Shown here in pieces: positions 1 through 55,036 of a DNA stretch of 64,000 nucleotides; within the stretch, counting starts at the first letter, position 1; every line of letters starts with the position of its first letter. The stretch spans positions 4,650,001-4,714,000 of the forward strand of contig NZ_FNSC01000001.1 in NCBI RefSeq assembly GCF_900105355.1, written 5' to 3'. The notes beneath the pieces were generated by a model. The model saw nothing but the letters and a program-made list of their open reading frames with translations, did no database searches and was not told the DNA's origin. The stretch comes from Pseudomonas anguilliseptica. GTDB lineage: Bacteria; Pseudomonadota; Gammaproteobacteria; Pseudomonadales; Pseudomonadaceae. The translations under genes were made by a program, and so were the position numbers.

Positions 1-720
1 CCAGCCAATTTTATTGGCCTCGGCCAGTTGATTCAGCGCCTGCCACAGCGCCGGCGGGAACGCCGCCGAATGACGAAGGAAGGTCGCCGAAATAGGCGCG
101 ACACGCTCGCTAAAGCTGACTGCCTCAGGCAACGCACCGAGCTGTTCACGCCAGTAGTCGCGAGCCGCAGCCGTGCGCCCCTGGTTTTCACGCTCGGCGT
201 CTTCGGCAAGTACTACGGCGTAGTCACCGAACTCGCAAGGTGCGGCCGGTTCACCGCGCGTTGCCGCGCCATACAACTGTGCAACGCGCTGATAGAGCAG
301 GTTGCTGCCATAACCATCGAGGGCGATGTGGTGAATGCAGCCGTAGAGAAAATCCACCTGCTCGCCCTGCAGCAGAGTGAAGCGGCAGGGCAGCTCGCAT
401 TCCAGATCGAACGGCTGGCGAATCTCGCTCATGCCCCACTGCTGCACCCAGGCCTGAGCATCGACCCCGACCGGTATTTTCACCTGCGCCACGCTGAGCG
501 GCAGCTCGGCAGGGTTGAACCACAGCTGCTCGCCATCGACCACGAAATGCCCGGACAGCGCTTCGCACTCGCTGACCGCCTGGCGCAACGCGGCGAGCAG
601 CGGCGGCGCCTGGATCTTGCCGGCGAAGGCAATGCATTCGGCGGTGTTGAACATGGCACGGTCTTCATTCAGCACATAGCCGTGCCACAGGCCCTGCTGG
701 GCGACACCTGGCGACCTCAT
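1..720 (-). CDS. NRPS, N-terminal condensation domain (EntF/VibF-like), partial
   Basis: The first 240 residues of a nonribosomal peptide synthetase that continues beyond position 1. They form the start of a condensation domain: the active-site motif HHIALDG (HHxxxDG type) lies near residue 135. By family this domain joins an aryl acid, loaded on the upstream carrier protein, to an amino acid. The ATG (718-720) overlaps the TGA of the isochorismatase gene (ATGA), so translation is probably coupled and this is the next gene of the siderophore operon. Adenylation and carrier domains lie outside the window, so the amino acid used and the final siderophore cannot be told. Reading frame is open throughout. 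Confidence 0.85.
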   Translation of the reverse strand, partial: MRSPGVAQQGLWHGYVLNEDRAMFNTAECIAFAGKIQAPPLLAALRQAVSECEALSGHFVVDGEQLWFNPAELPLSVAQVKIPVGVDAQAWVQQWGMSEIRQPFDLECELPCRFTLLQGEQVDFLYGCIHHIALDGYGSNLLYQRVAQLYGAATRGEPAAPCEFGDYAVVLAEDAERENQGRTAAARDYWREQLGALPEAVSFSERVAPISATFLRHSAAFPPALWQALNQLAEANKIGW

Positions 721-1590
721 GCGGCACCGCCATGCTGTTCGATCAGGCTCCACCAGCCGTTCAGCGTCGGCGTCTTGGCCAGGTCGGTAAAGCTCAGTTC
801 CAGGCCTTGCGCGCGCCACTCGCTGAGCAGCGCCATCACCTGGATCGAGTCCAGACCGTAATCCATCAGGTTCTCGTCGGGGTCGAAAGGTTCGTCCAGC
901 TCATCCAGCAAGCTCAGCAACCGCGCCTGCAAGGCGGCGCGGGTCCAGGCCGGTGCGGTGGCGCGGCCCAGGCCGAGTACGTCGGCACAGCCAATCACCT
1001 GGCCGCAGCGGGTAGCTACATAGTTAAGCGCCATCTGGTGGTCGGCCTGATTGAAGTCGGCCACGCCATCGGCCAGCAGGAACGGCTGGATGTCGCGCAT
1101 AAAGGCGTCGCAGGCGGTCATCAGGCAGCCGATATGGGCGTAGATCCCGCCAATGATCAGTTGATCGCGACCCAGCTCAGTCATCATGTGCTCCAGCGGC
1201 GAGCGCTGAAAGGCGCTGTAGCGCCACTTCACCAACACCGTGTCGTCGGGCTCCGGGGCCAGCCCTGCGATGATCGCCTGACGCTCGGGATGCTGGGTAA
1301 TGCCCGGGCCCCACATATCGTTAAGTAGGGCGCGCTCGGCATCGCTTTGCACACCCGGCTGTGCGGTATAAACCACCGGAATACCCAGCGCCTTGCACTG
1401 CATACGTACAGCGGCGAGGCGCTCAACCAGGGCACTGACAAAGGCGCTGTCGGCCTCCCAGAAGTCGGCGAAGTACGCCTGCATATCGTGAATCAACAGC
1501 ACCGCACGGGCTGGATCAAGGGTCCACTTGACCTTGTTCGGCGTCCATTCGCTGGGGGGGTTGGTAGGGCTGCAGAGCCGGAATAGCCAT
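717..1590 (-). pseudogene. Isochorismatase / aryl carrier protein (EntB/VibB-like), frameshifted
   Basis: Hydrolyses isochorismate to 2,3-dihydro-2,3-DHB and carries the activated aryl acid. Isochorismatase residues are LLIHDMQAYF, VLVKWRYSAF and the GGIYAHIGC region. The C-terminal carrier domain has the phosphopantetheine serine in GLDSI. From the ATG at 1588-1590 the protein reads MAIPALQPYQPP and then meets a run of seven G (plus strand 1554-1560). With six G the frame continues as SEWTPNKVKWTLDPARAVL into the open frame; as written it reaches a stop. The restored length is 290 aa, close to E. coli EntB (285 aa). The run could be a sequencing error, a real knock-out or a phase-variable/slippage tract. 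The remaining open frame begins only at the HDMQ motif. Confidence 0.85.
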
Positions 1591-1603
1591 GAAAATAAAA
1601 TCC

Positions 1604-4672: not shown

Positions 4673-6586
4673 CTACTTACCCCGCCCTGCCAGGATGCGC
4701 GTTGCCCCCTGGGTTTTCTGGCAGTACCAGAACACCCGGCTGACACCACGGGTGACGGCCACATAGGCCAGGCGCAGGCTTTCATCCTGCATGGCCTGGT
4801 CGTAGCTGTTGCTGAAAAAGCCCGAGTAGGCGTACAGCGCATTACGCAGCGGATGTGCTTCTGGCGGGTGACAGTCGTCGAGGATGATCGCCACTTCGGC
4901 CTGCAGGCCTTTGGCGCGGTGAATGGTGTAAGCCTTGACCGGCAGTTTCTTGTCCAGCTGCGCGGAGATGGCTTGCAACGGCTCATTACGCCGACTGAGC
5001 AGCAGCACGGCATTGCGTTCACGGCTGTTGCGCTCGGCGGCGTACGCGTACTGCTCGCGGATCTGCTTGAGCAGCTCCGGCAAACGCGCCTTACTGTCGA
5101 AACGCTGAATCAGGCGCACGCCATGCTCGCCCGGCTGCGTGATCTTGATGGCCTGGCTGGCTTTGGCCTGCTTGTGCTGCACGTCGCCCAGCAGCGTTTC
5201 GGCGTCACGGATAATCGGTTCAATCGAGCGGTAGTTATTGGCCAGGGTCAGCACTGCGCTGTGCTTTGCCCGTCCCTTGCCCGGAAAGTGTCGGTCGAAG
5301 TCGATAAACAGTTCCGGCGAGCTACCGCGCCAGCCGTAGATCGACTGCCAGTCATCGCCGATCGCCATCAGACTGACCGCAGCCCCCTGACCGGCCAGCG
5401 TGCGCTGCACGGCCTGTAGCCACTGCACGATCTGCGGCGAGATGTCCTGAAATTCGTCGATGAGCAGATGGCTAAATGGCGCCAGCAATTGTGGCGAAAC
5501 ACTCTGCTCACCGGCATTTAGCTGCGCCGTCAGCCGAGTAAAGGCGGCGTTAAACGTCAGCAGCCCCTGCTCTTGCAAGGCACGCTGGAAATAGGGCCAG
5601 AACAGCAGCAACGCTTCAAGGAACTCACGCACGGGCGCCGCAGTGTCGAGGCGTTGCGGTTGCATCGTCGACAGCTCAATGCCGATGCTCTCGGCAAATC
5701 CGGCCTGGGCGTAGAAGGCTTCATACAGCGGCACGCCGCTGAACTCGCCTACAAGTTTGAACAGATCAAGCGGGGCCTTGGGCAGGCGCTTAGCAGTGTC
5801 GGACGGTGGCGGCAGCTGCAGCAGGCTATGCACCTTTTGCCGAAACACCAGCTGCTCGGCATAGCACTGCTGGTAGGCCTACTTGAGCAGACGCTGCTGG
5901 GCAGGTCGCAGTCGCCCGGCGCTCAGCGGGTTATCCAGTTCGCGACTCGCCGCCTGCGGGTCATCCAGCTGTTCGAACCTGCGCGGATTGTTCAGCACGC
6001 TCTTGGCCACGCCGCCCATGGCCGCATGGAAGGTGCGCACGCACTGGCGCGCCTGCGCGGCATCGAAGGGGTAGTTGAAGAAGCCCAATACCTTGAGCAG
6101 CTGCTCGCGCAGCTCGGCGCAGGACGCATTGGTAAAGGAAATCACCGTCAGCTGTTCGGGCTTGATGCCCAGGTGGCAGAGCATAAACGCCACCCGCAGT
6201 ACCAACGTGGTGGATTTGCCCGAGCCGGCCCCGGCGAAGATGCGCGTCAGCGGATGATGGCTGAGAATCATCGCCCACTGCTCATCCGATGGCGCACTGA
6301 GCAACCCAGCCGTCACAGCCCGCGCCACCTGCTCACGCATGGCCTGGGCTTGTGCGGCCTCGACCGTCAGCATGGCCGGACCGTAAATACCTTGAGTGCG
6401 CGGTTTAGCGGGCCGCTTCGTGTTAGCCGACGGGCCCTTGGCAGGCGCTTTTTTCGCCCGAGGTGCTGGCTTGTTTAGCTGCGCAGCCGCATTACGCTCG
6501 GCGCGCAGGTAGGCTGTGGTATGGGGGAAATAACGCGCCAGAGCGGCGGATAAGAGCCGCTTGTAACGTTGAACAGCAGATGGCAT
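4673..6586 (-). pseudogene. UvrD/Rep-type superfamily 1 helicase with in-frame amber codon
   Basis: A 638-codon frame holds all SF1A helicase motifs in order: Walker A GAGSGKST, SFTNASCAELR (Ia), Walker B LLIDEFQD, GDDWQSIYGWRG (III), NNYRSIEP (IV), TIHRAKGLQAE (V) and VAVTRG (VI). Such enzymes unwind DNA 3'-5' in repair or replication restart. The frame is broken by TAG at 5879-5881, between RLLK and AYQQCYAEQ; the codons on either side stay in the same frame, so this is a base substitution and not an indel. The product would stop after motif Ia (about 235 aa), and the distal part lacks Walker A. The start ATG at 6586 was chosen because the extension upstream looks non-coding. The 289-bp gap (4384-4672) to the siderophore operon holds only the Fur-like box and no gene. 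Confidence 0.85.
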
Positions 6587-6701
6587 TCGCGACCCAGGCA
6601 GAAGATAGATCGTTGAATGATAAGTGCTTTTTACGGCGAGCTGGCGGCTGAGCGGTGAGAAAGCGCAACGCCTCTCACCGCTCAGTCCACCCGACGGGCT
6701 G

Positions 6702-18930: not shown

Positions 18931-20130
18931 CTAAGGAAACCCTGAAGAAGACTTCCTGAATTTGGCAAAATACCTGAACTCCACCCGCCGAGTTTTCCGA
19001 TGAAGCAGATGACCTTCGCCGACGCCGAGTACGCCGGCAAGCGCAAGCAAACCCGCAAAGAGCTGTTCCTGATCGAGATGGATCAGGTTGTGCCGTGGAA
19101 GGGTTTGATTGCCTTGATCGAACCGCATTACCCCAAGGGTGAAGGCGGACGTCCAGCCTATCCGCTGATGGCGATGTTACGGGTTCATTTGATGCAGAAC
19201 TGGTTCGGCTACAGCGACCCGGCGATGGAGGAGTCTCTGTACGAGACCACCATCCTGCGCCAGTTTGCGGGTCTGAGCCTGGAGCGCATTCCCGACGAAA
19301 CCACCATCCTCAACTTCCGCCGATTGCTGGAGAAACACGAACTGGCTGCGGGCATCTTGGCCGTCATCAATGGCTATTTGGGTGACCGCGGTTTGTCATT
19401 GCGCCAAGGCACCATCGTCGATGCCACGCTGATCAATGCGCCGAGTTCGACCAAGAACAAGGACGGTAAGCGTGACCCGGAAATGCACCAGACCAAGAAG
19501 GGAAACCAGTATTACTTCGGCATGAAGGCGCACATCGGCGTCGATGACGAGTCGGGTTTAGTGCATAGCGTGGTCGGCACGGCAGCCAATGTTGCAGACG
19601 TTACTCAGGTCGACAAGCTGCTACACGGCAAAGAAAACATGGTGGGTGCCGACGCGGGTTACACCGGCGTAGAGAAGCGGCCAGAACATGAAGGCCGTGA
19701 AGTGATCTGGCAGATCGCAGCCCGCCGCAGTACGTACAACACGTTGAGTAAGCGCAGCGCGCTGTACAAAGCCAAGCGCAAGATCGAGAAGGCCAAGGCG
19801 CAAGTTCGCGCCAAGGTCGAGCACCCGTTCCGGGTGATCAAGCGTCAGTTCGGTTATGTGAAGACGCGTTTCCGTGGCCTGGCCAAAAACACCGCACAAC
19901 TGGTAACGCTGTTCGCCCTGTCGAACCTGTGGATGGCCCGTCGACATTTGCTGACGAATGCAGGAGAGGTGCGCCTGTAATGTGGGAAATGACCGCTGCG
20001 AGGTGCTCGCGGCGGCCAGAAACACCGAAATGAGCGGATGACTTGATCGTTTTTGATCAGTTTTCCGCTTTCAAAATCAGCGGAGGCTGAAGTTGACCGG
20101 AAATACAGGGCTACTTCAGACCATCCCTAA
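18931..20130 (+). mobile_element. IS5-family insertion sequence, copy 1, with CTAA target duplication
   Basis: A 1192-bp element (18935-20126) flanked by CTAA at 18931-18934 and 20127-20130. The ends are imperfect inverted repeats: GGAAACCCTGAAGAAG at the left and the complement of GGATGGTCTGAAGTAG at the right. It carries one transposase gene. It sits between the SDR gene and the CurA-like gene, which are divergent, so the reductase now starts only 39 bp from the element and may have lost or changed its promoter. Confidence 0.92.
19000..19980 (+). CDS. IS5-family transposase, copy 1
   Basis: 326-aa DDE transposase of the IS5 group. The N-terminus MKQMTFADAEYAGKRKQTRK, the first catalytic Asp in GTIVDATLINAPSSTK, the second in ADAGYTG and the Glu in KVEHPFRVIKRQFG are all present, so it may be active. 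It differs from copies 2 and 3 at scattered residues (for example HGKENMVGADAG here, HGDENVVCTDAG in copy 2), so the copies are not recent duplicates of one another. Confidence 0.95.
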   Translation: MKQMTFADAEYAGKRKQTRKELFLIEMDQVVPWKGLIALIEPHYPKGEGGRPAYPLMAMLRVHLMQNWFGYSDPAMEESLYETTILRQFAGLSLERIPDETTILNFRRLLEKHELAAGILAVINGYLGDRGLSLRQGTIVDATLINAPSSTKNKDGKRDPEMHQTKKGNQYYFGMKAHIGVDDESGLVHSVVGTAANVADVTQVDKLLHGKENMVGADAGYTGVEKRPEHEGREVIWQIAARRSTYNTLSKRSALYKAKRKIEKAKAQVRAKVEHPFRVIKRQFGYVKTRFRGLAKNTAQLVTLFALSNLWMARRHLLTNAGEVRL

Positions 20131-21263: not shown

Positions 21264-24200
21264 CTACGCCACAGCTGTCTCTAACGCATCCTGTCTAATC
21301 GGCCGCCAACGGCGCAGCAGCATATACAGAGTCGGGATCACAAAAAGAGTGAAGAAGGTGCCGACCAGCAGGCCACCGACGATCACCATACCAATCTGCT
21401 GACGGCTTTCCGCACCCGCGCCCGTGGCAATCGCCAGTGGCAAGGAACCCAGCACCATCGCACCGGTGGTCATCAGAATCGGCCGCAGGCGCTGCACCGA
21501 CGCCTCGATCACCGCACCACGCAGTTCATGGCCCTGACGCAACAGCACGTTGGCAAACTCGACGATGAGGATGCCGTGCTTGGTAATCAGGCCGATCAGC
21601 GTCACCAGGCCGATCTGCGAGTAGATATTCAGGGTGTCGCCGAACAACGTCAGCGCCAGCAAGGCCCCGGCCATCGACAGCGGCACGCTGAACAGGATGA
21701 TCAACGGGTCGGTAAAGCTTTCGAACTGCGCCGCCAGCACCAGGAAGATAAACGCCAGGGCCAGGGCGAAGATCAGCGCAATGCCGGCGCTGGATTCCTT
21801 GAAGTCCCGCGAAGTACCGGTGTAGTCGTACTGAGTCTCCGCCGGGAACACCGTGCGCGCCGTGCTTTCCAAATGTGCCAGGGCTTCACCCAGGGTGTAG
21901 CCGGAGCCGACGTTGGCACTTACCGTCACTGCACGCAGCTGGTTGAAGTGGTTGAGCTCGCGCGGCGCCACAGTCTCGCGCACCTCAATCAGGTTGGACA
22001 GCTGCACCATGCTCTCATCGCGGCCACGCACATAAACGCGGTCGAGATCCTGCGGGTTGCTGCGGTCCACGCCCTGCAACTGCACCAGCACGTCGTACTG
22101 CTCGCCGTTCTGCTTGAAGCGCGTCACCTGACGGCTGCCGAACAGACTTTCCAGGCTGCGGCCAATGGTTGCCACGTCAGTGCCCACAGCCACCGCCTGC
22201 TCGCGATTGACCGCTACCTTGAGCTGCGGCGCGTTGAGCTTGAGATCGCTGTCCAGGCTTTCCAGCCCCGGATAATCGCGTAGCGAATTAAGCAATTCAT
22301 CGACATAACCCTGCAGCTCGCTGTACTCCATCGACGAGCGAATCACGAAGTTCACCGGCTGGTTACGCGCGCTTTGCCCAAGCGGCGGCCGGTTGACCGG
22401 GAAGGCCCGCACCCCGGCGATATCCTGCAGCTTGGGCAGTAACTCGTTGCGAATCTCGAACTGGCTGCGCGAACGGTCAGCCCAGTCTTCCAGCTTCATA
22501 AAGGAAATGCCCTGGGCCACCGTGGGGAAGCCGGCGATGACCATATAGCGGTTGGTCTCAGGGATGCTGGCGTAAGCGGCTTCGATCTCACGGGCATAAC
22601 GCCCGGTGTAATTGATGGTGGCACCGTCCGGGCCGTTGAATACACCGATGATGGTGCCGGTGTCCTCGGTGGGTGCCAGCTCGGACTTAAGCCCGGAGAA
22701 CAGCAGCACGCAGGCCGCCACCGTGAGCAACAGCACGCCTACCACCAGCCCCCAGGCACTCAGCGCCTTGGCTAGCAGGTGCTTGTAGCTGTAGGTCAGA
22801 CCGTTGAGAAAATCCTCGATCAGGTTGTACACCCGGTTATGCCGCTCGCCGGCCTGATGCGGCTTGAGTAGCAGCGCGCACATCATCGGCGTCAGGGTCA
22901 GGGCGACAAAACCCGACACCAGCACCGCGCCGGCCAGGGTCCAGGCGAATTCGGTAAACAGCTTGCCCGTGGTGCCCTGCATAAAGCCGATGGGGGCAAT
23001 TACCGCGGCCAGGGTCAGGGTCATGGCGATCACCGCAAAGGCAATTTCGCGACTGCCCTTGAGCGCCGCCTGCAGTGGCTGCATGCCCTCCTCGATATGC
23101 CGGTGGATGTTCTCCAGCATCACGATGGCATCGTCCACCACCAGACCGATGGCCAGCACCATGGCCAGCAGCGTCAGGGTATTGATGGTGAAACCCATCA
23201 GGCTCATCAGAGCAAATGCGCCGATCAGTGAAACCGGAATGGTCACCAGCGGAATGAGGGTAGCGCGTAGCGAACGTAGGAAGATAAAGATGATCAGGAT
23301 GACCAGCCCCACTGCTTCCCAGATGGTGATAAACACGTTGTCGATCGACTCGCGGATAAACAGCGAGTTGTCGTTAGCTACCGCCATCTGCATGCCTTCT
23401 GGCAGAATTCGCGCACATCCGGCAAGGCCTCAGCCAGGCCATCGGAAATGTCCAGCGGATTGGCGGTGGCCTGCTTGATCATGCCCATCGACACGGCCGA
23501 CTGGCCCTTGTAACGGACGATACTGCGCTCGTCCGCAGCGCCGATTTCGGCGTAACCGACATCCGCCAGGCGCAGCAGATAACCGCGTGAGTCGTCGAGG
23601 ATCAGTTGATTGAACTGCTCCGGGATGTTCATGTCGGTTTCCGAGAGCACGGTGAATTCACGCTGCTGCGATTCGATGCGCCCGGCGGGAATCTCAACGT
23701 TCTGCCGACGCAGGGCGTCTTCCACGTCCTGCACGGTAAGGTTGTGCGCGGCGAGCTTTTCCGGGTCCAGCCAGATGCGCATGGCGAAGGTGCGCGCGCC
23801 GCGAATCTGCACTTCAGAAACGCCAGGGATGGTCTGCAGGCGATCCTTGATCACCCGCTCCAGCACATCGGTGATCTCCATGGCGCTGTAGAAGGCCAGC
23901 CAGATCACCGGCTGGGCATCGGCCTCGACCTTCTGCACGATGGGCTCGGCGATTTCATCCGGCAGCAGGCCGCGCACCCGGCCCAGGTGATCGCGTACAT
24001 CGTTGGCGGCTTCATCGGAGTTACTGCCCAGGCGGAACTGCGCGGTGATCTGGGTGTTTTCCGAGCGGCTGATGGAGCTGACAAAATCCAGCCCGTCGAT
24101 GCCCGACAGCACATCCTCGATCGGCTGGGCGACCTGCGATTCCATGATCTCCGGGCTGGCACCCGGGTAGGTGACATTGACCGTGACAATCGGCACATCG

Positions 24201-24319
24201 ATATTCGGATACTCGCGCACGGCCAGTCGGTCATAGGCCATCAAACCGAGCAACACCACAATCAGCGACAGTACGGTGGCAAATACCGGCCGGCGGATGC
24301 AGATATCCGACAGGGTCAT
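21264..24319 (-). pseudogene. RND multidrug efflux permease (AcrB/MexB-like), frameshifted
   Basis: Proton-driven inner-membrane pump of the HAE-1 family. The proximal 313 aa are the N-terminus RRPVFATVLSLIVVLLG, REYPNIDVPIVTV and the first porter domain. The distal 709 aa run from MQMAVANDNSLFI through the transmembrane block with VGLVVDDAIVMLENI (proton-relay aspartates) to the C-terminus. At 23405-23409 the plus strand reads AGAATTCG. One extra base there (AAATT in coding sense) joins the frames as REILPEGMQMAVAND, giving 1018 aa, the usual size. The start overlaps the adaptor stop (ATGA). No outer-membrane channel gene is present. Without repair the pump is not made. Confidence 0.88.
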
Positions 24320-25348
24320 GGCGCTTGCTCCACCACCTTGGTGCGTACTGGCGCGCCGGCGCGAACCTTCTGCCAGCCAGCGCTGATCAGGGTTTCATCA
24401 CCCTGCAGGCCTTCCAGCACCTCGACCTTACCAGCCAGGCGCTTGCCCAGCTTGAGCTCGCGCACTTCGACCTTGCCTGCCACCACCAGGTTGACCAGCA
24501 GCTTGTCGCCCACCGGCATGATGGCTTCTTCTGGAATCACCAGGGCATTCGGCCGCTCGGCGAGGATCACCGAAACCCGCACGAACTGCCCTGGGCTCAG
24601 GCGCCCATCGCTGTTGCTGATATGCGCGCGAATCGCCTGGCTGCGTCCGGCTTCATCCAGACGTGGGTTGATGGCGAAAATCTCACCGTTAAAGCGTTCG
24701 CCCGGGTAAGCATCCAGACTGACTTCAATAAGCTGCTTGAGGCGGATCTGGCTGACGGCTTTCTGCGGAATGCGGAAATCCACTTTGAGTGGATCAAGCA
24801 CTTCCAGATTGACGATGTCCTGACCTTCGCTGAGGTAATCGCCGGGGCTGACGGCGCGTAAACCCAGCACGCCATCGTAGGGCGCAAGGATACGTGTCTT
24901 GTCCAGGCGTGCCTGGGAAAGCGCTAGGCTGGTTCGGGAGGCCTGCTGCTGAGCACTGGCTTCATCCAGCGCCTGAGCGTTACTGGCGCCGCGCTTGAAC
25001 AGCATCTGCGCACGTTGAAAGTTCTTTTCCGCGAGGTTCAGGTTGGCCTGCGCCTGTGCCAGTTCGGCGCGGGCAATTGCATCATCCAGGCTGACCAGCA
25101 GCGCACCGGCTTCAACCCGCTGGCCTTCACGAAAATGCAGTTGCGCCACTCGCCCGGCAATTTCCGGACGGATCATCCACCGACTCGTCGGGGCGCAGCG
25201 AACTGAAAGTCACCAGTTCATCACGCACCAGGCTCCGCTCGGGCTTGACCACCTCAACCAGTGGCCCTTCATTGGCCTGCACCTGCCCACTGGCGAGCGA
25301 ACACAACAGAACAGCTGTACCGAGCAGAGCAGGTACACGGGCAAACAT
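24316..25348 (-). pseudogene. RND periplasmic adaptor (membrane fusion protein), frameshifted
   Basis: Partner of the pump downstream. It begins with a signal peptide (MFARVPALLGTAVLLCSLAS) and ends with the beta-barrel region LVIPEEAIMPVGDKLLVN. The lipoyl half-motif IAGRVAQLHFREGQRVEAGALL and the hairpin follow after the break. At about 25177-25180 one extra base (GTGGATG for GTGATG in coding sense) shifts the frame after RPDESV. Removing it continues as MIRPEIAGRV and gives 343-345 aa, normal for the family. Both genes of this operon thus carry independent single-base indels. The 3' frame alone lacks the signal peptide. Confidence 0.87.
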
Positions 25349-25439
25349 ATACAACCCCTAGTTCTTTGTAGAGGCCGAGTCTAACGGCCGAGCCGCACAG
25401 ATCAGCCGTTAAAAATGTTTCCCGATATTGGCTGTCCGG

Positions 25440-30400: not shown

Positions 30401-30443
30401 CTTGGAACTTTTCGGCTACCTGCCGGAGCAGATCACCTTAATT

Positions 30444-30519
<76 letters not shown>

Positions 30520-30557
30520 ATACAACTTGGTTTTCAGCAGCACACTTCATAAAGAAG

Positions 30558-32404: not shown

Positions 32405-32887
32405 TCAGCAATCCGTCAGCTCGACAAACACCTCAATCAGCCGCTCGATACCGGCCTGATCCGCTGCGCTAAACCGCGCCAGCGACGGACTGTCGAGATC
32501 CAGCACACCGAGCAAGCGGCCGTCCTTGAACAGCGGCACCACCAGCTCGCTATTGGATGCACTGTCGCAAGCGATATGCCCGGCAAAGGCATGCACATCA
32601 TCGACTCGCTGGGTCTGCCCAGTCGCCGCAGCGGCGCCGCAGACACCGCGACCGAACGGAATCCGCACGCAGGCCACTTTACCCTGAAAAGGCCCAAGCA
32701 CCAGTTCCTCGCCACGGGCCAGATAGAATCCCACCCAGTTCAGGTCGCTCAGCTCCTGAAACAGAAACGCCGAAAACTACGCTGCATTGGCAATAAAGTC
32801 GCGCTCCCCGGCCAACAGCGCCTGAAGTTGCGCCACCAGCAGTGGATAGCCGTCGAGCCCCTGCCCGCTTTGTTGTAGATCAATCAT
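32405..32887 (-). pseudogene. msrC: Free methionine-(R)-sulfoxide reductase (GAF domain), in-frame amber
   Basis: A 160-residue frame matching MsrC/YebR. GAF-domain catalytic cysteines appear in CVRIPFGRGVCG and GHIACDSASNSELVVP, and the C-terminal LGVLDLDSPSLARF is typical. It would reduce free Met-R-sulfoxide with thioredoxin. A TAG codon lies at about residue 37, between NAA and FSAFLFQELSDLNWVG, and is most simply a CAG to TAG change. The frame continues on both sides. The ATG (32887) overlaps the ATPase gene by 8 bp, so it is the second gene of that operon; IS copy 2 broke the first gene, which may explain relaxed selection here. Confidence 0.85.
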
Positions 32888-33761
32888 CGTGCTTGCTCAG
32901 TAGTTGCAGCCCCACCCAGTCGCGGGCGAATTGATAGGCGCAGCGCCCATTACTATTGCCACGCCCCAAGGCCCAGCGTATCGCAGCCTTTTCCAGCTCA
33001 TCGTGCCACTGCCAAGCCAAGCCGGCCTGCGCGGCATGCACCCCGACCCAGTGGCGGACCACGTCGAGGAAATGCTCCTGAGTGAAAGGGTAGAACGACA
33101 GCCACAGGCCAAAGCGGTCGGACAGCGCAATCTTGTCTTCCACCGCCTCATTGGGATGCAGTTCACCATCGACTCGCTGCCAGTTTTCGTTGTCGCTCTG
33201 CTTCTCCGGCAGCAGATGGCGACGGTTGGAGGTGGCATACAGCAGCATATTGTCCGGCGCGCGCTCCAGGGAGCCATCGAGCACGGTTTTCAGCATGCGG
33301 TAATCGCCCTCGCCGGCCTCGAACGACAGGTCATCGCAGAACAGCACGAAACGCTGCGGTAGCTCGCTCAGCTGCTCGACAATTCGCGGCAGATCGGCCA
33401 GATGATCACGCTCGATCTCAACCAGGCGCAGCCCCGCTGCCGCATGCTCGGTCAATAATGCCCGCACCAGCGATGACTTACCCGTACCGCGCGCGCCCCA
33501 GAGCAACGCGTGGTTGGCCGGCAATTCCTGGATAAACTGCTGGGTATTGCGCGCCAACTGGGCACGCTGACGATCTACCCCGATCAGATCATCCAGACTC
33601 ACATCCAGACTGACCTGCAGCGGCGCGAGAAAGCCGCTGCGGCCATCGCGCCGCCAACGTGCCGCCAGGCTCTGCTGCCAGTCGATAACCGGACGCTGTA
33701 CCGGCAATAAGGGCTCTAAGCGGGCAAGTACAGCCTCAGCGCGCAACAAAAAATCACTTAA
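32880..33761 (-). pseudogene. DUF815-type AAA ATPase, 5' end cut off by IS copy 2
   Basis: A 290-residue P-loop ATPase of the DUF815 family: Walker A WGARGTGKSSL near residue 85, Walker B FVLFCDDLSFE, sensor LLYATSNRRHLLPE and the GRCAYQFARDWVGLQLL tail. Function in the cell is unknown. The frame runs into IS copy 2 (TSD 33758-33761). On the far side, 34969-34958 encodes GTG GAT TCG CGT with GGAG 6 bp before. Joining across one TTAA restores VDSRLSDFLLRAEAVLARLE and 297 aa. Only a weak TTG start (33749) remains on this side, so expression is doubtful. Confidence 0.85.
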
Positions 33762-34957
33762 GGATGGTCTGAAGTAGCCCTGTATTTCCGGTCAACTTCA
33801 GCCTCCGCTGATTTTGAAAGCGGAAAACTGATCAAAAACGATCAAGTCATCCGCTCATTTCGGTGTTTCTGGCCGCCGCGAGCACCTCGCAGCGGTCATT
33901 TCCCACATTACAGGCGCACCTCTCCTGCATTCGTCAGCAAATGTCGACGGGCCATCCACAGGTTCGACAGGGCGAACAGCGTTACCAGTTGTGCGGTGTT
34001 TTTGGCCAGGCCACGGAAGCGCGTCTTCACATAACCGAACTGGCGCTTGATCACGCGAAACGGATGCTCGACCTTGGCGCGCACTTGGGCTTTGGCCTTC
34101 TCGATCTTGCGCTTGGCTTTGTATAACCCGCTGCGCTTATCGAGCTTCCTGTAGGTGCTGCGGCGTGCCGCCACCTGCCAGATTACCTTCCGACCTTCAT
34201 GCTCCGGACGCTTTTCGACACCGGTGTAACCTGCGTCAGTACACACCACGTTTTCGTCGCCGTGCAGCAGTTTGTCTACCTGGGTGACATCCGCCACGTT
34301 GGCTGCCGTGCCTACTACGCTGTGCACCAGACCCGACTCGTCATCCACGCCGATGTGCGCCTTCATGCCGAAGTAGTACTGGTTGCCCTTCTTTGTTTGG
34401 TGCATTTCCGGATCGCGCTTACGGTCCTTGTTCTTGGTCGAACTCGGCGCATTGATCAACGTGGCATCGACGATGGTGCCCTGGCGCAGTGACAGACCAC
34501 GGTCGCCCAGGTAGCCGTTAATCACGGCCAAGATGCCTGCAGCCAGCTCGTGTTTCTCCAGCAAGCGACGGAAGTTGAGGATGGTGGTTTCATCGGGAAT
34601 GCGCTCCAGGCTTAAGCCGGCGAACTGGCGCAGGATGGTGGTCTCGTACAGCGTTTCCTCCATCGCCGGATCGCTGTAACCGAACCAGTTTTGCATCAGA
34701 TGCACACGCAGCATCGCCATCAGCGCATAGGCGGGCCTGCCACCTTCGCCCTTCGGGTAGTGCGGATCGATCAGGGTGACCAATCCTTCCCACGGCACTA
34801 CTCGATCCATCTCGATCAGGAACAACTCTTTGCGGGTCTGCTTGCGCTTGCCTGCGTACTCGGCGTCGGCGAAGGTCATCTGCTTCATCGGAAAACTCGA
34901 CGGGTGGAATCCGGGTATTTTGCCAAAATCAGGAAGTCTTCTTCAGAGTTTCCTTAA
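33758..34957 (-). mobile_element. IS5-family insertion sequence, copy 2, with TTAA target duplication
   Basis: A 1192-bp element (33762-34953) of the same kind and length as copy 1, flanked by TTAA at 33758-33761 and 34954-34957. It is inserted after the fourth codon of the ATPase gene, in the same direction. Its ends are GGATGGTCTGAAGTAG and the complement of GGAAACTCTGAAGAAG. Confidence 0.92.
33908..34888 (-). CDS. IS5-family transposase, copy 2
   Basis: 326 aa, DDE motif complete as in copy 1. It is the most diverged of the three, for example MDRVVPWEGLVTLIDPHY, HGDENVVCTDAGYTG and STYRKLDKRSGLYK. The frame is open, so it may be functional. Confidence 0.95.
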   Translation of the reverse strand: MKQMTFADAEYAGKRKQTRKELFLIEMDRVVPWEGLVTLIDPHYPKGEGGRPAYALMAMLRVHLMQNWFGYSDPAMEETLYETTILRQFAGLSLERIPDETTILNFRRLLEKHELAAGILAVINGYLGDRGLSLRQGTIVDATLINAPSSTKNKDRKRDPEMHQTKKGNQYYFGMKAHIGVDDESGLVHSVVGTAANVADVTQVDKLLHGDENVVCTDAGYTGVEKRPEHEGRKVIWQVAARRSTYRKLDKRSGLYKAKRKIEKAKAQVRAKVEHPFRVIKRQFGYVKTRFRGLAKNTAQLVTLFALSNLWMARRHLLTNAGEVRL

Positions 34958-46361: not shown

Positions 46362-47186
46362 ATGACCCAAAGCACCAGCGGCCGCGTCAGCCGTGAAAAA
46401 CGCGGCCAGATCATGTTGATCGGCCTGGACCGAGCGAGCAAACGCAACGCTTTCGACATGCCCATGCTTGATGACATGTGCCTGGCCTATGGTGAGTTCG
46501 AACGCGACAGCGAGGCGCGGGTGGCACTGGTATTTGCCCATGGTGAACACTTTACCGCTGGCTTGGACCTGGCCAATGTGGCGGCGCAGTTCGCCGCCGG
46601 CTGGAAGATACCTGAAGGCGGTTGCGATCCCTGGGGCGTGTTCGGCGGGCCACGGGTGAGCAAACCGGTGATCGTCGCCGCGCAAGGCTACTGCTACACC
46701 ATTGGCATCGAGCTGATGCTCGCCTCGGATATCAACCTGTGCGCCAGCAATACCCGTTTCGCCCAGATGGAAGTGCAGCGCGGCATCTTCCCCTTCGGCG
46801 GTGCCACTTTGCGCATGCATCAGACCGCTGGCTGGGGCAACGCCATGCGTTGGCTGCTGACGGGCGATGAGTTCGATGCTCACGAAGCCTATCGCCTGGG
46901 CTTTATCCAGCAGGTGGTGGCCAGTGAAGAACTGCTGCCCAAGGCGCTGTGGCTCGCCGAACGCATTGCCGCACAGGCCCCGCTGGGTGTGCAGGCAACC
47001 CTGGCCTCAGCACGTCAGGCCGTGGTCGAAGGCCCGGCTGCCGCAGCCGCAAACCTGCACCCCACCGTTACCCGTCTGATGGCCAGTGAAGATGCGCAGG
47101 AAGGTGTGCGAGCGATGCTGGAACGTCGCCCAGGTGATTTGCAAAGGACGCTGAGTTTCATAATCCGCGAGCTGTTAAGAACCTGA
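46362..47186 (+). CDS. Enoyl-CoA hydratase/isomerase (crotonase) family protein
   Basis: 274-aa crotonase-fold protein. Oxyanion-hole segments are GEHFTAGLDLANV and AAQGYCYTIGIELMLASDI, and FAQMEVQRGIFPFGGATLR holds the acidic active-site region. The substrate is unknown. The C-terminus looks altered: after RRPGD the text reads LQRTLSFIIRELLRT into a palindromic repeat. Removing one A from the AAA at 47143-47145 would give DLQGR and a stop at 47154 (263 aa), which fits the usual short RRPxxFxGR ending. The catalytic part is intact, so function may persist. The start has ACAAGGA ahead. Confidence 0.87.
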   Translation: MTQSTSGRVSREKRGQIMLIGLDRASKRNAFDMPMLDDMCLAYGEFERDSEARVALVFAHGEHFTAGLDLANVAAQFAAGWKIPEGGCDPWGVFGGPRVSKPVIVAAQGYCYTIGIELMLASDINLCASNTRFAQMEVQRGIFPFGGATLRMHQTAGWGNAMRWLLTGDEFDAHEAYRLGFIQQVVASEELLPKALWLAERIAAQAPLGVQATLASARQAVVEGPAAAAANLHPTVTRLMASEDAQEGVRAMLERRPGDLQRTLSFIIRELLRT

Positions 47187-47319
47187 TTTACGGTATTGCG
47201 AGCTAGGGTCATGCAAGGCAAAAGCAGGCGAGGAAGCGGAGTTTACTGGCGTAAATGAGCATTCCGAGCCTGCTTTTAACGCAGCAGGGCCGACGCGCAG
47301 CAGACCGAAAACAGGTTCT
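47178..47319. repeat. 142-bp palindromic intergenic repeat
   Basis: Ends AGAACCTG and CAGGTTCT form a perfect 8-bp inverted repeat. Inside, GCAGGCGAGGAAGCGGAG-TTTAC and GTAAATGAGCATTCCGAGCCTGC form a long imperfect hairpin. It fills the space between the convergent crotonase and spermidine-synthase-like genes and touches both stop codons. It resembles dispersed intergenic repeats I remember from other Pseudomonas genomes; no other copy was seen in this window. Confidence 0.65.
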
Positions 47320-48092
47320 CAGGTCGCCGGCCGCACTGCTTTGATCAACGATTCCAGCGAATAACCGAACTGCGGCGCCAATAGCGCATCACGGCGGCGC
47401 AGTTCGTCGAAGTCGATTTCCTGCTCCAGATCCGCCGGCACCAGCAACACCACATTGCCCTCCTTCACCGGGCACTCCCAGTAATGCCGATGGTAGAGAC
47501 CGCGCAGCAGCGGCGCGCCAAGCGGCTTGCCGTCGTTGCCGGCCCACTGGTTGATGATCAGCCAGCCGCCGAGATTGAGCTGCTTCTGGCAGTTTTCCAG
47601 AAAGCGCCAGGCCAGATGCCCAGTCGCCGGACCGTGATCGGTATACAGGTCGACAAACAGCAGGTCGGTCTTTTCCGCGCTTTCCAGCAGTTCCAGCGCA
47701 TCGCCGATACGGATGGTCAGGCGCGGATCATCGGTGAGCCCCATATGTTCCATGGCCAGACGAGGCACATCGGCGCGCAGCTCGATCACCTCGACATCAT
47801 CCAGCGGCAGAAACTTCAGGCAGGCCTGGGTCAGGTTGCCGGCACCAAGGCCGAGAAACAGCGCGCTTTCCGGCTGCTCGTGGCACAGCGCGCCAAGCAG
47901 CATGGCGCGGGTGTAGTCGTATTCCAGCCAGCTGGGGTCCGGCATATAGACGCAGCTCTGCTCAATCGCCTCACCAAATTCGAGAAAGCGGTACGCGCCC
48001 ATTTCGACCACCTGAATCACCCCGAAAGCATCGTGCACTTCGGCGATCAGCAGCGGATCCGGCATCTGCCCAACCGGAGGTAAACCTGGCAT
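47319..48092 (-). CDS. Spermidine synthase-like methyltransferase-fold protein
   Basis: 257-aa Rossmann-fold protein of the polyamine-synthase family. The cofactor loop is LFLGLGAGNLTQACLKFL near residue 80, followed by VEVIELRADVPRLA (acidic ligand) and DLLFVDLYTDHGPATG, which replaces the usual SpeE acceptor-site motif. It lacks the N-terminal beta-barrel of true spermidine synthases, so aminopropyl transfer is not certain. ATG 48092 is chosen for its GGAG at 8 bp; GTG 48101 is the alternative. Divergent from the monooxygenase operon. Confidence 0.8.
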   Translation of the reverse strand: MPGLPPVGQMPDPLLIAEVHDAFGVIQVVEMGAYRFLEFGEAIEQSCVYMPDPSWLEYDYTRAMLLGALCHEQPESALFLGLGAGNLTQACLKFLPLDDVEVIELRADVPRLAMEHMGLTDDPRLTIRIGDALELLESAEKTDLLFVDLYTDHGPATGHLAWRFLENCQKQLNLGGWLIINQWAGNDGKPLGAPLLRGLYHRHYWECPVKEGNVVLLVPADLEQEIDFDELRRRDALLAPQFGYSLESLIKAVRPAT

Positions 48093-51313: not shown

Positions 51314-52053
51314 TGGAGATTGTCTGGCTGGCCCTGGCCGGTTTTATCCTGCTGGCGTACACCCTGGAGGCGATCACCGGTTTCGGCAGCATCGTGATTG
51401 CCCTGTCACTGGGCGCCTTGCTGCTGCCCATTGACCAGCTGCTGCCAGTGCTGGTGCCGCTGAATATCTGCATGACCGGTTACCTGGTCTGGCGACATCG
51501 GCAGATGATCGACCGGCGCCTGCTGCTGGGCATGATCCTGCCGGGCATGGTCGTCGGCACCCTGCTCGGTTATGCCCTGCTGCCCTTCCTCGATGCGGCC
51601 CTGGCCAAGCGCCTGTTTGGCGCACTGGTGCTGTGGTTTGCCGCTCGCGAACTGTGGCGCCTGCGTCACGCAGCCGTGCAACCCGTGCACCCCCTGTGGC
51701 TCAGCCGCCTGCTCAGCCTGTGCGCTGGCGTCAGCCATGGCCTGTTTGCCTCCGGGGGGCCGCTGCTGGTGTTCGCCCTGGCCGGTACGCAACTGGACAA
51801 GGCGCGCCTGCGCGCCACCCTGGTCACGGTGTGGTTCACCCTCAACAGCCTGCTGACCCTGGCCTTTCTGCTCGACGGCCGCCTACTCCCTGCGCTGCCG
51901 CAAGTCGCCAGCTACGCGCCTCTGCTGCTGATCGGCGTGTGGCTGGGTGAGCGCCTGCACCAGCGCTTCAACGAACAGCATTTCCGCATTGCCATCTACC
52001 TGTTGCTGCTGGTCACCGGCGGCCTGCTGCTCGCGCCCTGGAGTCTGCTATGA
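51313..52053 (+). CDS. TauE/SafE (TSUP) family sulfite/organosulfonate exporter-like protein
   Basis: 246-aa membrane protein with seven to eight hydrophobic segments. The two TSUP half-repeats are seen as YTLEAITGFGSIVIALSLGAL and LCAGVSHGLFASGGPLLVFAL. The family moves sulfite, sulfoacetate and other organic anions. It overlaps both neighbours: TGATG with the SDR and ATGA with the amidohydrolase. Together with the BASS protein it gives this operon two different anion transporters. Confidence 0.85.
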   Translation: MEIVWLALAGFILLAYTLEAITGFGSIVIALSLGALLLPIDQLLPVLVPLNICMTGYLVWRHRQMIDRRLLLGMILPGMVVGTLLGYALLPFLDAALAKRLFGALVLWFAARELWRLRHAAVQPVHPLWLSRLLSLCAGVSHGLFASGGPLLVFALAGTQLDKARLRATLVTVWFTLNSLLTLAFLLDGRLLPALPQVASYAPLLLIGVWLGERLHQRFNEQHFRIAIYLLLLVTGGLLLAPWSLL

Positions 52054-53759
52054 GCTTTGACATCATCATCAAGAATGGTCTGTATTTCGATGGAACAGGC
52101 ACACCCGGTGCGCGGCGGCATATCGGCATCAAGGACGGACGTATCGATGTGCTCAGCCTCAGCCCCCTGGATGAAAGTGGCTGCCCCGAGGTGCTGGATG
52201 CCGCTGGCAAGTGGGTAACGCCAGGCTTTCTGGAAATCCACTCGCACTACGACGCCGAAGTGATCGCCGCACCCGCATTGAAGGAATCGGTGCGCCATGG
52301 CGTCACCAGCGTGACCATCGGCTCCTGCTCGATCAGTATGGTGCTGGCTGATGCAGAGGACTGCTCGGACCTGTTCACCCGCGTCGAGGCGGTGCCGCGC
52401 GAATACGTGCTGCCGATCCTGCAGGAGAAGAAGACCTGGCGCGACGCCGCCGGCTACCGCGCCTTCTACGACCAGCAGCCGCTGGGACCGAACGTCAGCT
52501 CCTTCCTCGGCCACTCCGAACTGCGCGTGGCGGTGATGGGACTGGAACGGGCCACGAGCAAGATCAAACCGACTGAAGCCGAGTTGCAGCGCATGGAACA
52601 GCTGCTGGAAGAGGCGCTGGACGCCGGCTGCATTGGCCTGTCGGTGATGACCACCAAGCTGGACAAGATGGACGGCGACCGCGCCTGGTCCAGCCCGCGG
52701 CCCTCGACCTTTGCCAGCTGGACCGAGTTCTCCCGCCTGTTTGCGGTGCTGCGCCGGCGTGGTGCGGTGCTGCAGGGCGCGCCGGACGCGGTGACCAAGG
52801 TCAACGTGTTCGCCTTCCTCTACCAGGCCCACGGCTGGTTTAGAAAGCCGCTGAAGTGCTCGATGCTCACCGCGCTGGACCTGAAATCTCAGCCGCTGCT
52901 GCACCGTTTCACCCGCCTCTCCGGCTGGCTGGCCAACCGCGTGCTGCGCGGCCATTTCCGCTGGCAGACCCTGCCCGCGCCCTTCACCCTGCGCCTGGAA
53001 GGGCTGAACGTGAACGCGTTTGAAGAGTTCGGCGCGGGCGAGATTCTGCGCAATATCAAGGACCCGGACGAGCTGTACGCCAAGGTGCTGGAGCCGGAGT
53101 TCCGTGCCCTGTTCAAGAAGCAGGTCAAGGCCGTGCTGACCAAGGGTTTGTGGCACCGCGACTTCTCCGACTGCTGGGTGACCGAATGCCCGGACGCCAG
53201 TCTAATCGGCAAGAACTTCAAGCAGCTCGGCGCCGCCTGCGGCCTGGACCCGGTGGACGCCTACTTCGAGCTGGCCTGCCAGTACCGCGAGGCGCTGAAG
53301 TGGAGCACCTGCTACGGCAACCAGCGCGAGGCGGTGATGCACAAGCTGCTGGCCAGCCCCTGGACCCAGCCGGGATTCGCCGACTCGGGCGCACACCTGC
53401 GCTCCATCGCTCAGTACAACTTCCCGCTGCGCTTCCTTAAATACGTGCGTGACGCCGAACTGGCCGGCACGCCGTTTATGGACATGGGTCGCGCTATCAA
53501 TCGCCTGAGTGGCGAGCTGGCGGACTTTATCGGGGTGGACGCCGGCACTATCCGTGTTGGCGACCGTGCTGATGTGGTGATCGTCAACCCGGCCGGGCTG
53601 ACCGATGAGCTGGACGAGATACATGAGGCGCGGATGGAGGTGCTCGGCCTGGAGCGGGTGGTCAAACGCAATGACGCGGCGGTCGACGCCACCCGGATCA
53701 ACGGCCGTATCGCCTACCGTCGCGGCAGCGAGTTCCCGCAAGAGCTAGGGATCCTCTGA
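52050..53759 (+). CDS. Amidohydrolase (N-acyl-D-amino-acid deacylase type), 3' end replaced by IS
   Basis: 569 aa as written. Metal motif EIHSHYDAE (HxH type) is near residue 66, with VTSVTIGSCSISM and ALDAGCIGLSVMT after it. The C-terminal metal and closing strands are in FADSGAHLRSIAQYNF and RVGDRADVVIVNPAGLTDE. Such enzymes cut N-acyl-D-amino acids, dihydropyrimidines or related amides. IS copy 3 is inserted at CTAG 53745-53748, and the final GIL and stop come from the junction and the IS end. Joining 53748 to 54945 restores 596 aa ending NGFRPVTT. The catalytic domain is complete, so some activity may remain. Last gene of the operon. Confidence 0.87.
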   Translation: MSFDIIIKNGLYFDGTGTPGARRHIGIKDGRIDVLSLSPLDESGCPEVLDAAGKWVTPGFLEIHSHYDAEVIAAPALKESVRHGVTSVTIGSCSISMVLADAEDCSDLFTRVEAVPREYVLPILQEKKTWRDAAGYRAFYDQQPLGPNVSSFLGHSELRVAVMGLERATSKIKPTEAELQRMEQLLEEALDAGCIGLSVMTTKLDKMDGDRAWSSPRPSTFASWTEFSRLFAVLRRRGAVLQGAPDAVTKVNVFAFLYQAHGWFRKPLKCSMLTALDLKSQPLLHRFTRLSGWLANRVLRGHFRWQTLPAPFTLRLEGLNVNAFEEFGAGEILRNIKDPDELYAKVLEPEFRALFKKQVKAVLTKGLWHRDFSDCWVTECPDASLIGKNFKQLGAACGLDPVDAYFELACQYREALKWSTCYGNQREAVMHKLLASPWTQPGFADSGAHLRSIAQYNFPLRFLKYVRDAELAGTPFMDMGRAINRLSGELADFIGVDAGTIRVGDRADVVIVNPAGLTDELDEIHEARMEVLGLERVVKRNDAAVDATRINGRIAYRRGSEFPQELGIL

Positions 53760-54944
53760 AGTAGCCATGCATTTCTGGCTGACGTCAGCCTCTGCTGATT
53801 TCGAAAGTGATAAATCGATCAAAAACGATCAGATTACCGGCTCATTTCTGTGTTTTTAGCCGCCGCGAGCACCTCGCGGCAGCCATTTCCAGCATTACGG
53901 GCGCACCTCTCCTGCATTCGTCAGTAAATGTCGGCGCGCCATCCACAGATTTGACAGCGCGAATAAAGTCACCAGTTGCGCCGTGTTTTTGACCAGGCCA
54001 CGGAAGCGCGTCTTCACATAACCGAACTGACGCTTGATCACCCGAAACGGATGCTCGACCTTGGCTCGCACTTGGGCCTTGGCCTTCTCGATTTTGCGCT
54101 TGGCTTTGTACAGCGCGCTGCGCTTACCGAGTTTCTTGTAAGTGCTACGCCGTGCTGCAACCTGCCAGATCACTTGACGGCCCTCATGCTCGGGGCGCTT
54201 CTCGACACCGGTATATCCGGCATCGGCCCCCACCATGTTTTCCTCGCCGTGCAGCAGCTTATCGACCTGGGTGACATCCGCCACGTTGGCGGCAGTACCC
54301 ACCACGCTGTGCACCAAGCCAGACTCGTCATCCACCCCGATGTGCGCCTTCATGCCGAAGTAATACTGATTGCCTTTCTTGGTTGAGTGCATCTCAGGGT
54401 CACGCTTACCGTTCTTGTTCTTGGTTGAACTCGGCGCGTTGATCAGCGTGGCATCGACGATGGTGCCTTGGCGCAGCGACAAACCACGGTCACCCAGGTA
54501 GCCATTGATCACGGCCAGGATGCCGGCAGCCAGTTCGTGTGTTTCCAGCAAGCGGCGGAAGTTGAGGATGGTGGTTTCGTCAGGAATGCGCTCCAGAGTC
54601 AGCCCGGCAAACTGGCGTAGGATGGTGGTCTCGTACAGCGCCTCTTCCATCGCCGGATCGCTGTAACCGAACCAGTTTTGCATCAGATGCACTCGCAGCA
54701 TCGCCATCAGCGGATAGGACGGTCGGCCGCCTTCACCCTTTGGATAATGCGGCTCGATCAAAGCGATCAACCCTTTCCATGGCACTACCCGATCCATCTC
54801 GATCAGGAACAATTCTTTGCGGGTCTGCTTGCGCTTGCCGGCATACTCGGCGTCGGCGAAGGTCATCTGCTTCATCGGAAAACTCGGCGGGTGGAGTGCG
54901 GATATTTTGCCAAAATCAGGAAGTCTTTTTCAGACCATCCCTAG
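53745..54944 (-). mobile_element. IS5-family insertion sequence, copy 3, with CTAG target duplication
   Basis: A 1192-bp element (53749-54940) flanked by CTAG at 53745-53748 and 54941-54944. The ends read GGATCCTCTGAAGTAG and the complement of GGATGGTCTGAAAAAG. It has replaced the last 30 codons of the amidohydrolase gene and lies opposite to that gene. Confidence 0.92.
53895..54875 (-). CDS. IS5-family transposase, copy 3
   Basis: 326 aa with all three DDE residues in the same places as copy 1. Marker differences are RPSYPLMAML, LLETHELAAG, KNKNGKRDPEMHSTKKG and the final GEVRP. Frame intact. Confidence 0.95.
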   Translation of the reverse strand: MKQMTFADAEYAGKRKQTRKELFLIEMDRVVPWKGLIALIEPHYPKGEGGRPSYPLMAMLRVHLMQNWFGYSDPAMEEALYETTILRQFAGLTLERIPDETTILNFRRLLETHELAAGILAVINGYLGDRGLSLRQGTIVDATLINAPSSTKNKNGKRDPEMHSTKKGNQYYFGMKAHIGVDDESGLVHSVVGTAANVADVTQVDKLLHGEENMVGADAGYTGVEKRPEHEGRQVIWQVAARRSTYKKLGKRSALYKAKRKIEKAKAQVRAKVEHPFRVIKRQFGYVKTRFRGLVKNTAQLVTLFALSNLWMARRHLLTNAGEVRP

Positions 54945-55036
54945 GCAAGCTGCAGGGCTTTGGCTGCTTTCTGCCGGGGCGTGACGTATTGCCACGCACG
55001 GCAACCACCAACGGCTTCAGGCCTGTCACTACCTGA
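54945..55036 (+). pseudogene. Severed 3' end of the amidohydrolase gene
   Basis: Continues the amidohydrolase frame across IS copy 3: CTA G plus GC AAG gives LGKLQGFGCFLPGRD, then VLPRTATTNGFRPVTT and TGA at 55034-55036. It has no start or ribosome site of its own. Confidence 0.85.

What the first reader, a model, noticed from the sequence alone, without database searches (positions are those of the whole stretch)
717..55036. Unusual density and variety of broken genes
About ten genes of some sixty show a visible lesion: indels in the entB-like, RND permease, adaptor, tpm and crotonase genes; amber codons in the helicase and fRMsr; a large in-frame deletion in fadE; IS insertions in the ATPase and amidohydrolase. 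Lengths restored by one-base corrections match family lengths (tpm 218 aa, RND 1018 aa). Substitutions, a deletion and IS insertions cannot all come from homopolymer read errors, so real decay is likely. The lost functions are mostly accessory: iron scavenging, efflux, methylation, repair.
Basis: partly seen in the sequence, partly recalled or inferred. Interest (0 to 1): 0.75.

Follow-up and report, generated by a model that had tools for sequence, protein, structure and literature searches.

The report
IS-ridden Pseudomonas genome losing genes
Several genes in this stretch of a Pseudomonas chromosome, probably that of the fish pathogen P. anguilliseptica, are broken by real mutations that its close relatives lack, and the genome is crowded with jumping DNA, so it looks like a lineage in an early phase of gene loss.

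Summary
Observation largely confirmed. Against five relatives (about 90% nt identity), 6 of 53 testable window genes are broken here and 0 of 235 tested loci in the relatives' matching regions: a UvrD-like helicase and fRMsr (ambers), an RND permease, its adaptor and tpm (frame breaks), and fadE (1,005-bp in-frame deletion). An entB-like gene has a frame break in a C7 run. IS elements sit at the ends of an ATPase and an amidohydrolase gene. The crotonase claim fails. Apart from entB, the one-base breaks lie at runs of 3 nt or less, so homopolymer error is unlikely. The density is unusual against relatives, not clearly against the rest of this genome (p = 0.05 and 0.25).

Size, contig number and G+C match P. 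anguilliseptica DSM 12111, whose published gene counts leave about 375 genes that are neither protein-coding nor tRNA/rRNA, against 61 in P. peli. Best reading: recent gene decay with concerted IS expansion, a new member of a known kind.

The parts
717..1594 (-). entB-like gene (isochorismatase + carrier domain); one-base frame break near its start, in a C7 run; effect uncertain
   Evidence: compared with G040 and G041 only
4673..6685 (-). UvrD-like helicase gene with an internal amber codon about 40% along
   Evidence: 4 of 4 relatives intact
21264..24319 (-). RND efflux permease gene, one-base frame break near 23.4 kb
24316..25354 (-). RND periplasmic adaptor gene, one-base frame break near 25.2 kb
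28181..29623 (+). fadE-type acyl-CoA dehydrogenase, in-frame deletion of 335 codons (815 to 480 aa)
32405..32887 (-). fRMsr-type GAF-domain gene with an internal amber codon
42640..43292 (-). tpm (thiopurine S-methyltransferase) gene, one-base frame break about 25 codons before the end
32880..33773 (-). DUF815 AAA-type ATPase gene with an IS at its 5' end
52050..55036 (+). amidohydrolase gene interrupted by an IS about 30 codons before its end
18936..20127 (+). IS5-family element, intergenic here
33762..34952 (-). IS5-family element
53738..54940 (-). IS5-family element of another subfamily
46362..47186 (+). crotonase gene: not broken, only its last residues differ from relatives

Best explanation
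The window samples a genome in recent, lineage-specific gene decay alongside a concerted expansion of several unrelated IS families. Shown: the lesions, their absence from close relatives, the IS copy numbers, and near-identity of IS copies within subfamilies. Inferred: the genome is Pseudomonas anguilliseptica (most likely the type strain DSM 12111), a fish pathogen. Inferred: weaker effective selection on dispensable functions (bottlenecks or a changed niche) let point mutations, small indels, deletions and IS insertions in accessory genes persist, while most genes stay under normal purifying selection. Not shown: that IS activity itself caused the six breaks.
For: 6/53 broken here, 0/235 in relatives' matching regions. 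13/227 loci broken over the C1 sample, 3/224 in P. peli and 3/219 in MatS1 (p = 0.019 each). One-base breaks at runs of 3 nt or less. RND permease loci: 3 of 9 interrupted, against 0/10, 0/9 and 0/11 in G038, G039, G042. IS5 probe 163 hits against 0-5 in nine genomes; IS66 64 matches against 0, 0, 1, 1 in G038-G041; other multicopy IS. IS subfamilies at least 99.4% identical inside. Identity: 5.23 Mb and 3 contigs, window G+C 60.5%, against 5.2 Mb, 3 contigs, 60% for P. anguilliseptica DSM 12111 in PMC12911915 Table 2; its counts (5,205 genes, 4,754 protein-coding, 64 tRNA, 12 rRNA) leave 375, against 61 for P. peli by the same subtraction. Intact genes show ordinary dN/dS (0.076; P. peli 0.079).
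Against: With P. peli alone and a stricter cut the excess is 17/353 against 8/346, p = 0.10. 1-5% pseudogenes is called usual for free-living bacteria (PMC3899985, passages), and this sample's 4.8-5.7% is only at or just above that range. The broken genes' dN/dS (0.085) is close to MatS1's for the same genes (0.080). P. anguilliseptica is said to show little or no host specificity (PMC8608339, passage), which speaks against strict host restriction. Relatives are drafts or MAGs, which under-report repeats. Species identity rests on summary numbers, not on sequence.
Confidence: 0.85

Rival explanations
1. The one-base breaks and ambers are sequencing or assembly errors.
For: No reads were available; the entB break lies in a C7 run.
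Against: Nine frame-changing differences lie at runs of 3 nt or less; the two window ambers are C-to-T changes; a deletion and IS insertions are of other kinds; reported completeness is 99.98%.
Confidence: 0.06
2. Ordinary background: a normal pseudogene load that happens to cluster in this window, with the IS load unconnected.
For: Window against rest of own genome p = 0.052 and 0.25; own against P. peli p = 0.10 in the stricter single-relative test; 1-5% pseudogenes is called usual (PMC3899985).
Against: 0/235 in the relatives' matching regions; p = 0.019 against each relative when two must agree; published gene counts leave about 375 against 61 (if the species name holds); several IS families multicopy.
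Confidence: 0.15
3. A mutator strain: loss of mismatch repair produced the breaks.
For: Several small indels and transitions.
Against: mutS and mutL are each found with an open frame; the indels are not in long homopolymer runs. Other repair genes were not tested.
Confidence: 0.03
4. The amber codons are read through by a suppressor tRNA, so those genes still work.
For: Of the five internal stops between 10% and 90% of a gene, four are TAG; the fRMsr one is TAG as well, and one RND locus elsewhere has an internal TAG.
Against: TAG ends 45 of 301 and 33 of 281 called genes. No CTA-anticodon tRNA in the 20 of 21 pattern loci scanned (not a full tRNA scan). CAG to TAG is the expected transition in a GC-rich genome (inference).
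Confidence: 0.02

Closest known systems
IS5 expansions in Pseudomonas syringae pv. aesculi and pv. lachrymans (PMC12858298; abstract and passages seen)
   Same: Recent, clade-specific growth of an IS5-family element to more than 100 copies in one genome of the genus.
   Different: Here at least five IS5 subfamilies plus IS66-, IS630- and IS30-like elements are multicopy together. The paper saw no clear correlation between IS5 and other families. It is a plant pathogen.
Aliivibrio salmonicida LFI1238 (PMC2627896; abstract and passages seen)
   Same: Fish pathogen with 288 IS elements, 370 degenerate genes and an IS-poor sister species.
   Different: There IS insertions disrupted 183 genes; here, of the 7 IS copies with an empty site in a relative, 3 lie in genes. 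A different genus.
Staphylococcus aureus subsp. anaerobius (PMC8171923; abstract seen)
   Same: About 87 IS, largely intergenic, with at least 205 pseudogenes.
   Different: A clearly host-restricted clone; niche restriction is not shown here.
Photobacterium damselae subsp. piscicida (PMC9317898; passages seen)
   Same: IS proliferation with pseudogenization in a fish pathogen.
   Different: Specialised subspecies with known host adaptation; not tested here.
IS5-family elements ISPst7, ISPre1 and IS1384 on Pseudomonas plasmids
   Same: About 87-88% nt identity over the 1,031 bp queried; IS5 transposase model NF033581 matched.
   Different: Chromosomal copy number here is far above that in the nine genomes searched.

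Membership tests
Pseudogene (inactivated gene) | Reading frame interrupted relative to intact orthologues | tested here: met
   Six window genes, 4 of 4 relatives each; entB-like and the two IS-touched genes are softer cases
Pseudogene (inactivated gene) | Relaxed constraint (dN/dS rising towards 1) | tested here: inconclusive
   Slight excess for fadE (0.11 against 0.03) and the adaptor (0.10 against 0.04); none or little for helicase, RND, fRMsr, tpm; pooled 0.085, with MatS1 at 0.080. Fits recent breaks
Pseudogene (inactivated gene) | No functional product made | not testable with these tools
   Needs proteomics or assays
IS5 family insertion sequence | IS5-family transposase and typical length | tested here: met
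   NF033581 358.7 bits against a cut-off of 140; mean length 1,190 bp, 37 of 38 with an ORF of 315 aa or more
IS5 family insertion sequence | Short target-site duplication | tested here: met
   Copies are mostly flanked by CTAR-like tetramers, seen by eye in the printed flanks; several copies differ; no count made
IS-expanded decaying genome (as in A. salmonicida) | IS number far above that of close relatives | tested here: met
   163 against 1, 0, 3, 0 in G038-G041; IS66 64 against 0, 0, 1, 1; relatives are drafts
IS-expanded decaying genome (as in A. salmonicida) | Raised pseudogene number over the genome | tested here: inconclusive
   13/227 against 3/224 and 3/219, but 17/353 against 8/346, p = 0.10; published counts point the same way if the species name holds
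IS-expanded decaying genome (as in A. salmonicida) | Narrowed niche or host restriction | not testable with these tools
   No metadata for the genome; P. anguilliseptica is said to have little or no host specificity (PMC8608339)
Pseudomonas anguilliseptica (species) | ANI of 95% or more to the type strain | not tested
   No named type-strain sequence was at hand; only size, contig number, G+C and clade agree

The most novel reading that the evidence does not exclude
This is the genome of the fish pathogen P. anguilliseptica caught early in a lifestyle change: unrelated IS families (IS5 in at least five subfamilies, IS66, IS630, IS30) burst together because selection at the level of the host population weakened, not because one element became hyperactive, and hundreds of accessory genes are being lost so recently that most have not yet diverged, so the order of losses could still be read.
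Probability: 0.38. Interest if true: 0.55.

Novelty: new member of a known kind. Interest (0 to 1): 0.42.

Why it matters
Whether IS bursts are driven by the element or by the host's population biology is open. The P. syringae paper (PMC12858298, passages seen) says a population cause should make all IS families expand in concert, and it saw no clear signal. This genome shows several unrelated families multicopy together beside recent gene breaks, with IS-poor sister genomes at about 90% identity, so the prediction can be tested here. If the species name holds, it also adds a Pseudomonas to the fish pathogens with IS-rich, decaying genomes; the listings of my searches showed no paper on this for P. 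anguilliseptica.

Tried and rejected
Local hotspot: window against rest of own genome gives p = 0.052 and 0.25, so it is not claimed. Crotonase lesion: rejected. A P. peli 479-aa gene that looked frame-shifted at 38.9-40.4 kb was rejected because only P. peli's gene call extends upstream. Mutator: mutS and mutL open. Amber suppression: no CTA tRNA in 20 of 21 pattern loci.

Rows dropped or kept: the gene cut by the window edge was dropped (54 to 53). In one search, loci flagged by only one of two relatives were not counted (own 9, P. peli 14, MatS1 12). Two of the three MatS1 breaks lie at the fetched edge, and two of the 13 own breaks are partial matches (about 10% and 53% coverage); all were left in. 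In one search matches under 60% coverage and genes near fetched edges were dropped by the script. Several's breaks on both sides may be start-site miscalls. The gene calls come from a simple script of mine, not from a standard gene finder.

C2, first taken for a plasmid, is a chromosomal piece: it aligns with P. peli contig C8 and carries mutS.

Species: unnamed in the tools. Size, contig number and G+C match P. anguilliseptica DSM 12111, and no record of that strain is among the 80 loci, where the tool says the window's own or very near records may be left out. This is inference. MatS1, filed under the same name, is a soil isolate about 90% identical here, so probably another species. PMC8941931 (passages) reports IS elements and/or integrases beside one locus in DSM 12111 and some other strains; it does not treat IS number.

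Full report
Setting. The window is C1:4,650,001-4,714,000 of a 5.23-Mb, three-contig Pseudomonas genome with reported completeness 99.98%. The closest named relatives found are P. peli DSM 17833 and P. anguilliseptica MatS1, with several MAGs, at about 90-91% nt identity over the shared stretch. The tools give no species name. Size, contig number and G+C (60.5% in the window) match P. anguilliseptica DSM 12111 as tabulated in PMC12911915 (5.2 Mb, 3 contigs, 60%; section read). MatS1, a soil isolate (PMC12294265, passage), is probably another species.

Lesions. Predicted genes of five relatives (G038 P. peli, G039 MatS1, G040, G041, and part of G042) were compared with the window by tblastn, and each genome was then tested against the others with one script. 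Here 54 loci had two or more relatives and 7 were flagged; one is cut by the window edge, leaving 6 of 53. The relatives gave 0/52, 0/47, 0/53, 0/55 and 0/28. Each of the six is flagged by 4 of 4 relatives: an amber in a UvrD-like helicase, frame breaks in an RND permease, its adaptor and tpm, an in-frame deletion in fadE (815 to 480 codons, 1,005 bp), and an amber in an fRMsr-type gene.

Softer cases. The entB-like break lies in a C7 run near the start and could be compared only with G040 and G041; its two Pfam domains still match in the downstream frame. One IS sits at the 5' end of a DUF815 ATPase gene, inside or just outside it depending on the gene call. One interrupts an amidohydrolase near its 3' end. 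A third is intergenic. The crotonase is intact apart from its last residues.

Error or mutation. One search examined 17 candidate frame-changed genes in the window, the larger C1 sample and C2. Nine have a frame-changing one-base difference specific to this genome, six against two or more relatives and three against P. peli alone. All nine lie at runs of 3 nt or less. The other eight are differences of one relative, upstream of the start, or not resolved by the alignment. The two window ambers are C-to-T changes of a codon that all compared relatives keep. With a deletion and IS insertions besides, read error is unlikely, except perhaps at entB.

Age. Pooled dN/dS against G041 over 43 unbroken window genes is 0.076 here, 0.079 for P. 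peli and 0.096 for MatS1, so selection is not relaxed in general. The six broken genes give 0.085 here, 0.057 for P. peli and 0.080 for MatS1. An excess is visible for fadE (0.11 against 0.03 in P. peli) and the adaptor (0.10 against 0.04), and little or none for the other four. Most breaks are therefore recent on the scale of the species split.

Is the window special? Requiring P. peli and MatS1 to agree, 13 of 227 loci are broken here (window 5/39, elsewhere 8/188), 3/224 in P. peli and 3/219 in MatS1. Fisher p is 0.052 for window against elsewhere, 0.019 against each relative, and 0.035 for elsewhere against both relatives. With P. peli alone and a stricter cut the counts are window 4/44, rest of the C1 sample 6/237 and C2 7/72; together 17/353 against 8/346 in P. 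peli (p = 0.10), and window against rest p = 0.25. So the density is high against relatives in this region, the genome-wide excess is moderate in this sample, and the window is not shown to be a hotspot. RND permease loci point to a wider effect: 3 of 9 interrupted here, against 0/10 in G038, 0/9 in G039 and 0/11 in G042. G041 has 8 whole and one in pieces; G040 has 8 whole and three partial matches (loci counted by hand).

Published counts. By PMC12911915 Table 2, P. anguilliseptica DSM 12111 has 5,205 genes, of which 4,754 are protein-coding, 64 tRNA and 12 rRNA; 375 remain. The same subtraction leaves 61 for P. peli and 18-49 for the other four strains in the table. The remainder is mostly pseudogenes in such annotation (my reading), with some small RNAs. 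If the genome is that strain, this is independent support for genome-wide decay.

IS load. The window's three IS elements are of the IS5 family. A 42-bp probe with up to 3 mismatches hits 163 times here, 1, 0, 3 and 0 times in G038-G041, and 3, 0, 0, 0 and 5 times in G012, G014, G003, G010 and G005. The transposase model NF033581 gives 95 matches here (94 of 181 candidates scored) and 0-4 in eight clade genomes (23 in G012). In an 864-kb sample of C1, 38 full-length copies form five multicopy subfamilies of 3-13 copies and two singletons, at least 99.4% identical inside and 85-95% between; 37 of 38 keep a long ORF. IS66 transposase (PF03050) matches 64 times here, fragments included, 0, 0, 1 and 1 times in G038-G041, and 16, 6, 2 and 0 times in G012, G014, G003 and G020. 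Elements that look IS630- and IS30-like (named by eye from their proteins) have 8 and 3 full copies in 1.06 Mb and no match in 880 kb of P. peli or 480 kb of MatS1. Drafts under-report repeats, but the sampled contigs are 1.82 and 1.66 Mb long. Of the 38 copies, 7 have an empty site in a relative: 4 intergenic by the gene calls (the ATPase one among them) and 3 in genes, one of which is P. peli's own IS5 transposase gene. For 31 no empty site was found.

Explanation. Several unrelated IS families multicopy together, with recent breaks in accessory genes under otherwise ordinary selection, fit weaker effective selection on dispensable functions, from bottlenecks or a changed niche. That cause is inferred. 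A direct IS role in the six window breaks is not shown. Mismatch-repair genes are open. Against strict host restriction, P. anguilliseptica is said to show little or no host specificity (PMC8608339, passage), and 1-5% pseudogenes is called usual for free-living bacteria (PMC3899985, passages).

Known ground. IS5 expansion beyond 100 copies is reported in P. syringae (PMC12858298); IS expansion with decay in A. salmonicida (288 IS, 370 degenerate genes; PMC2627896), P. damselae subsp. piscicida (PMC9317898) and S. aureus subsp. anaerobius (PMC8171923, abstract). The case is a new member of a known kind. Its value lies in the concerted multi-family expansion, the recency of the breaks and the close IS-poor relatives.

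Noticed in passing
window 47178-47323: A ~145-bp hairpin-forming intergenic repeat. No Rfam family reached threshold there.
   Followed up: partly
G000:C2 (206 kb; L249-L258): This contig is a piece of chromosome, aligned to P. peli C8, and carries the only mutS match; with 7 near-full IS5 copies and 3 pieces. An assembly break or an IS-mediated split of the chromosome are both possible.
   Followed up: partly
G000:C1:2537511-2540490 and C1:3072114-3075203 (L005): Two further RND permease loci are interrupted, one in two pieces and one with an internal TAG.
   Followed up: no
window 40372-41118: A short-chain dehydrogenase gene with an open frame but far higher divergence from G041 (dN 0.148) than P. 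peli shows (0.011); perhaps replaced by recombination.
   Followed up: no
window 717-1594: The C7 run at the start of the entB-like gene could in principle be a slippage-prone switch rather than a fixed break; not tested.
   Followed up: no
G000 C1 and C2 samples: Of five internal stops between 10% and 90% of a gene, four are TAG; CAG-to-TAG transition is the likely reason.
   Followed up: partly
window 30227-30633: A tandem tRNA cluster Gly-Glu-Gly-Glu; another Ala-Glu-Ala-Glu cluster lies near C1:3,375,700.
   Followed up: no
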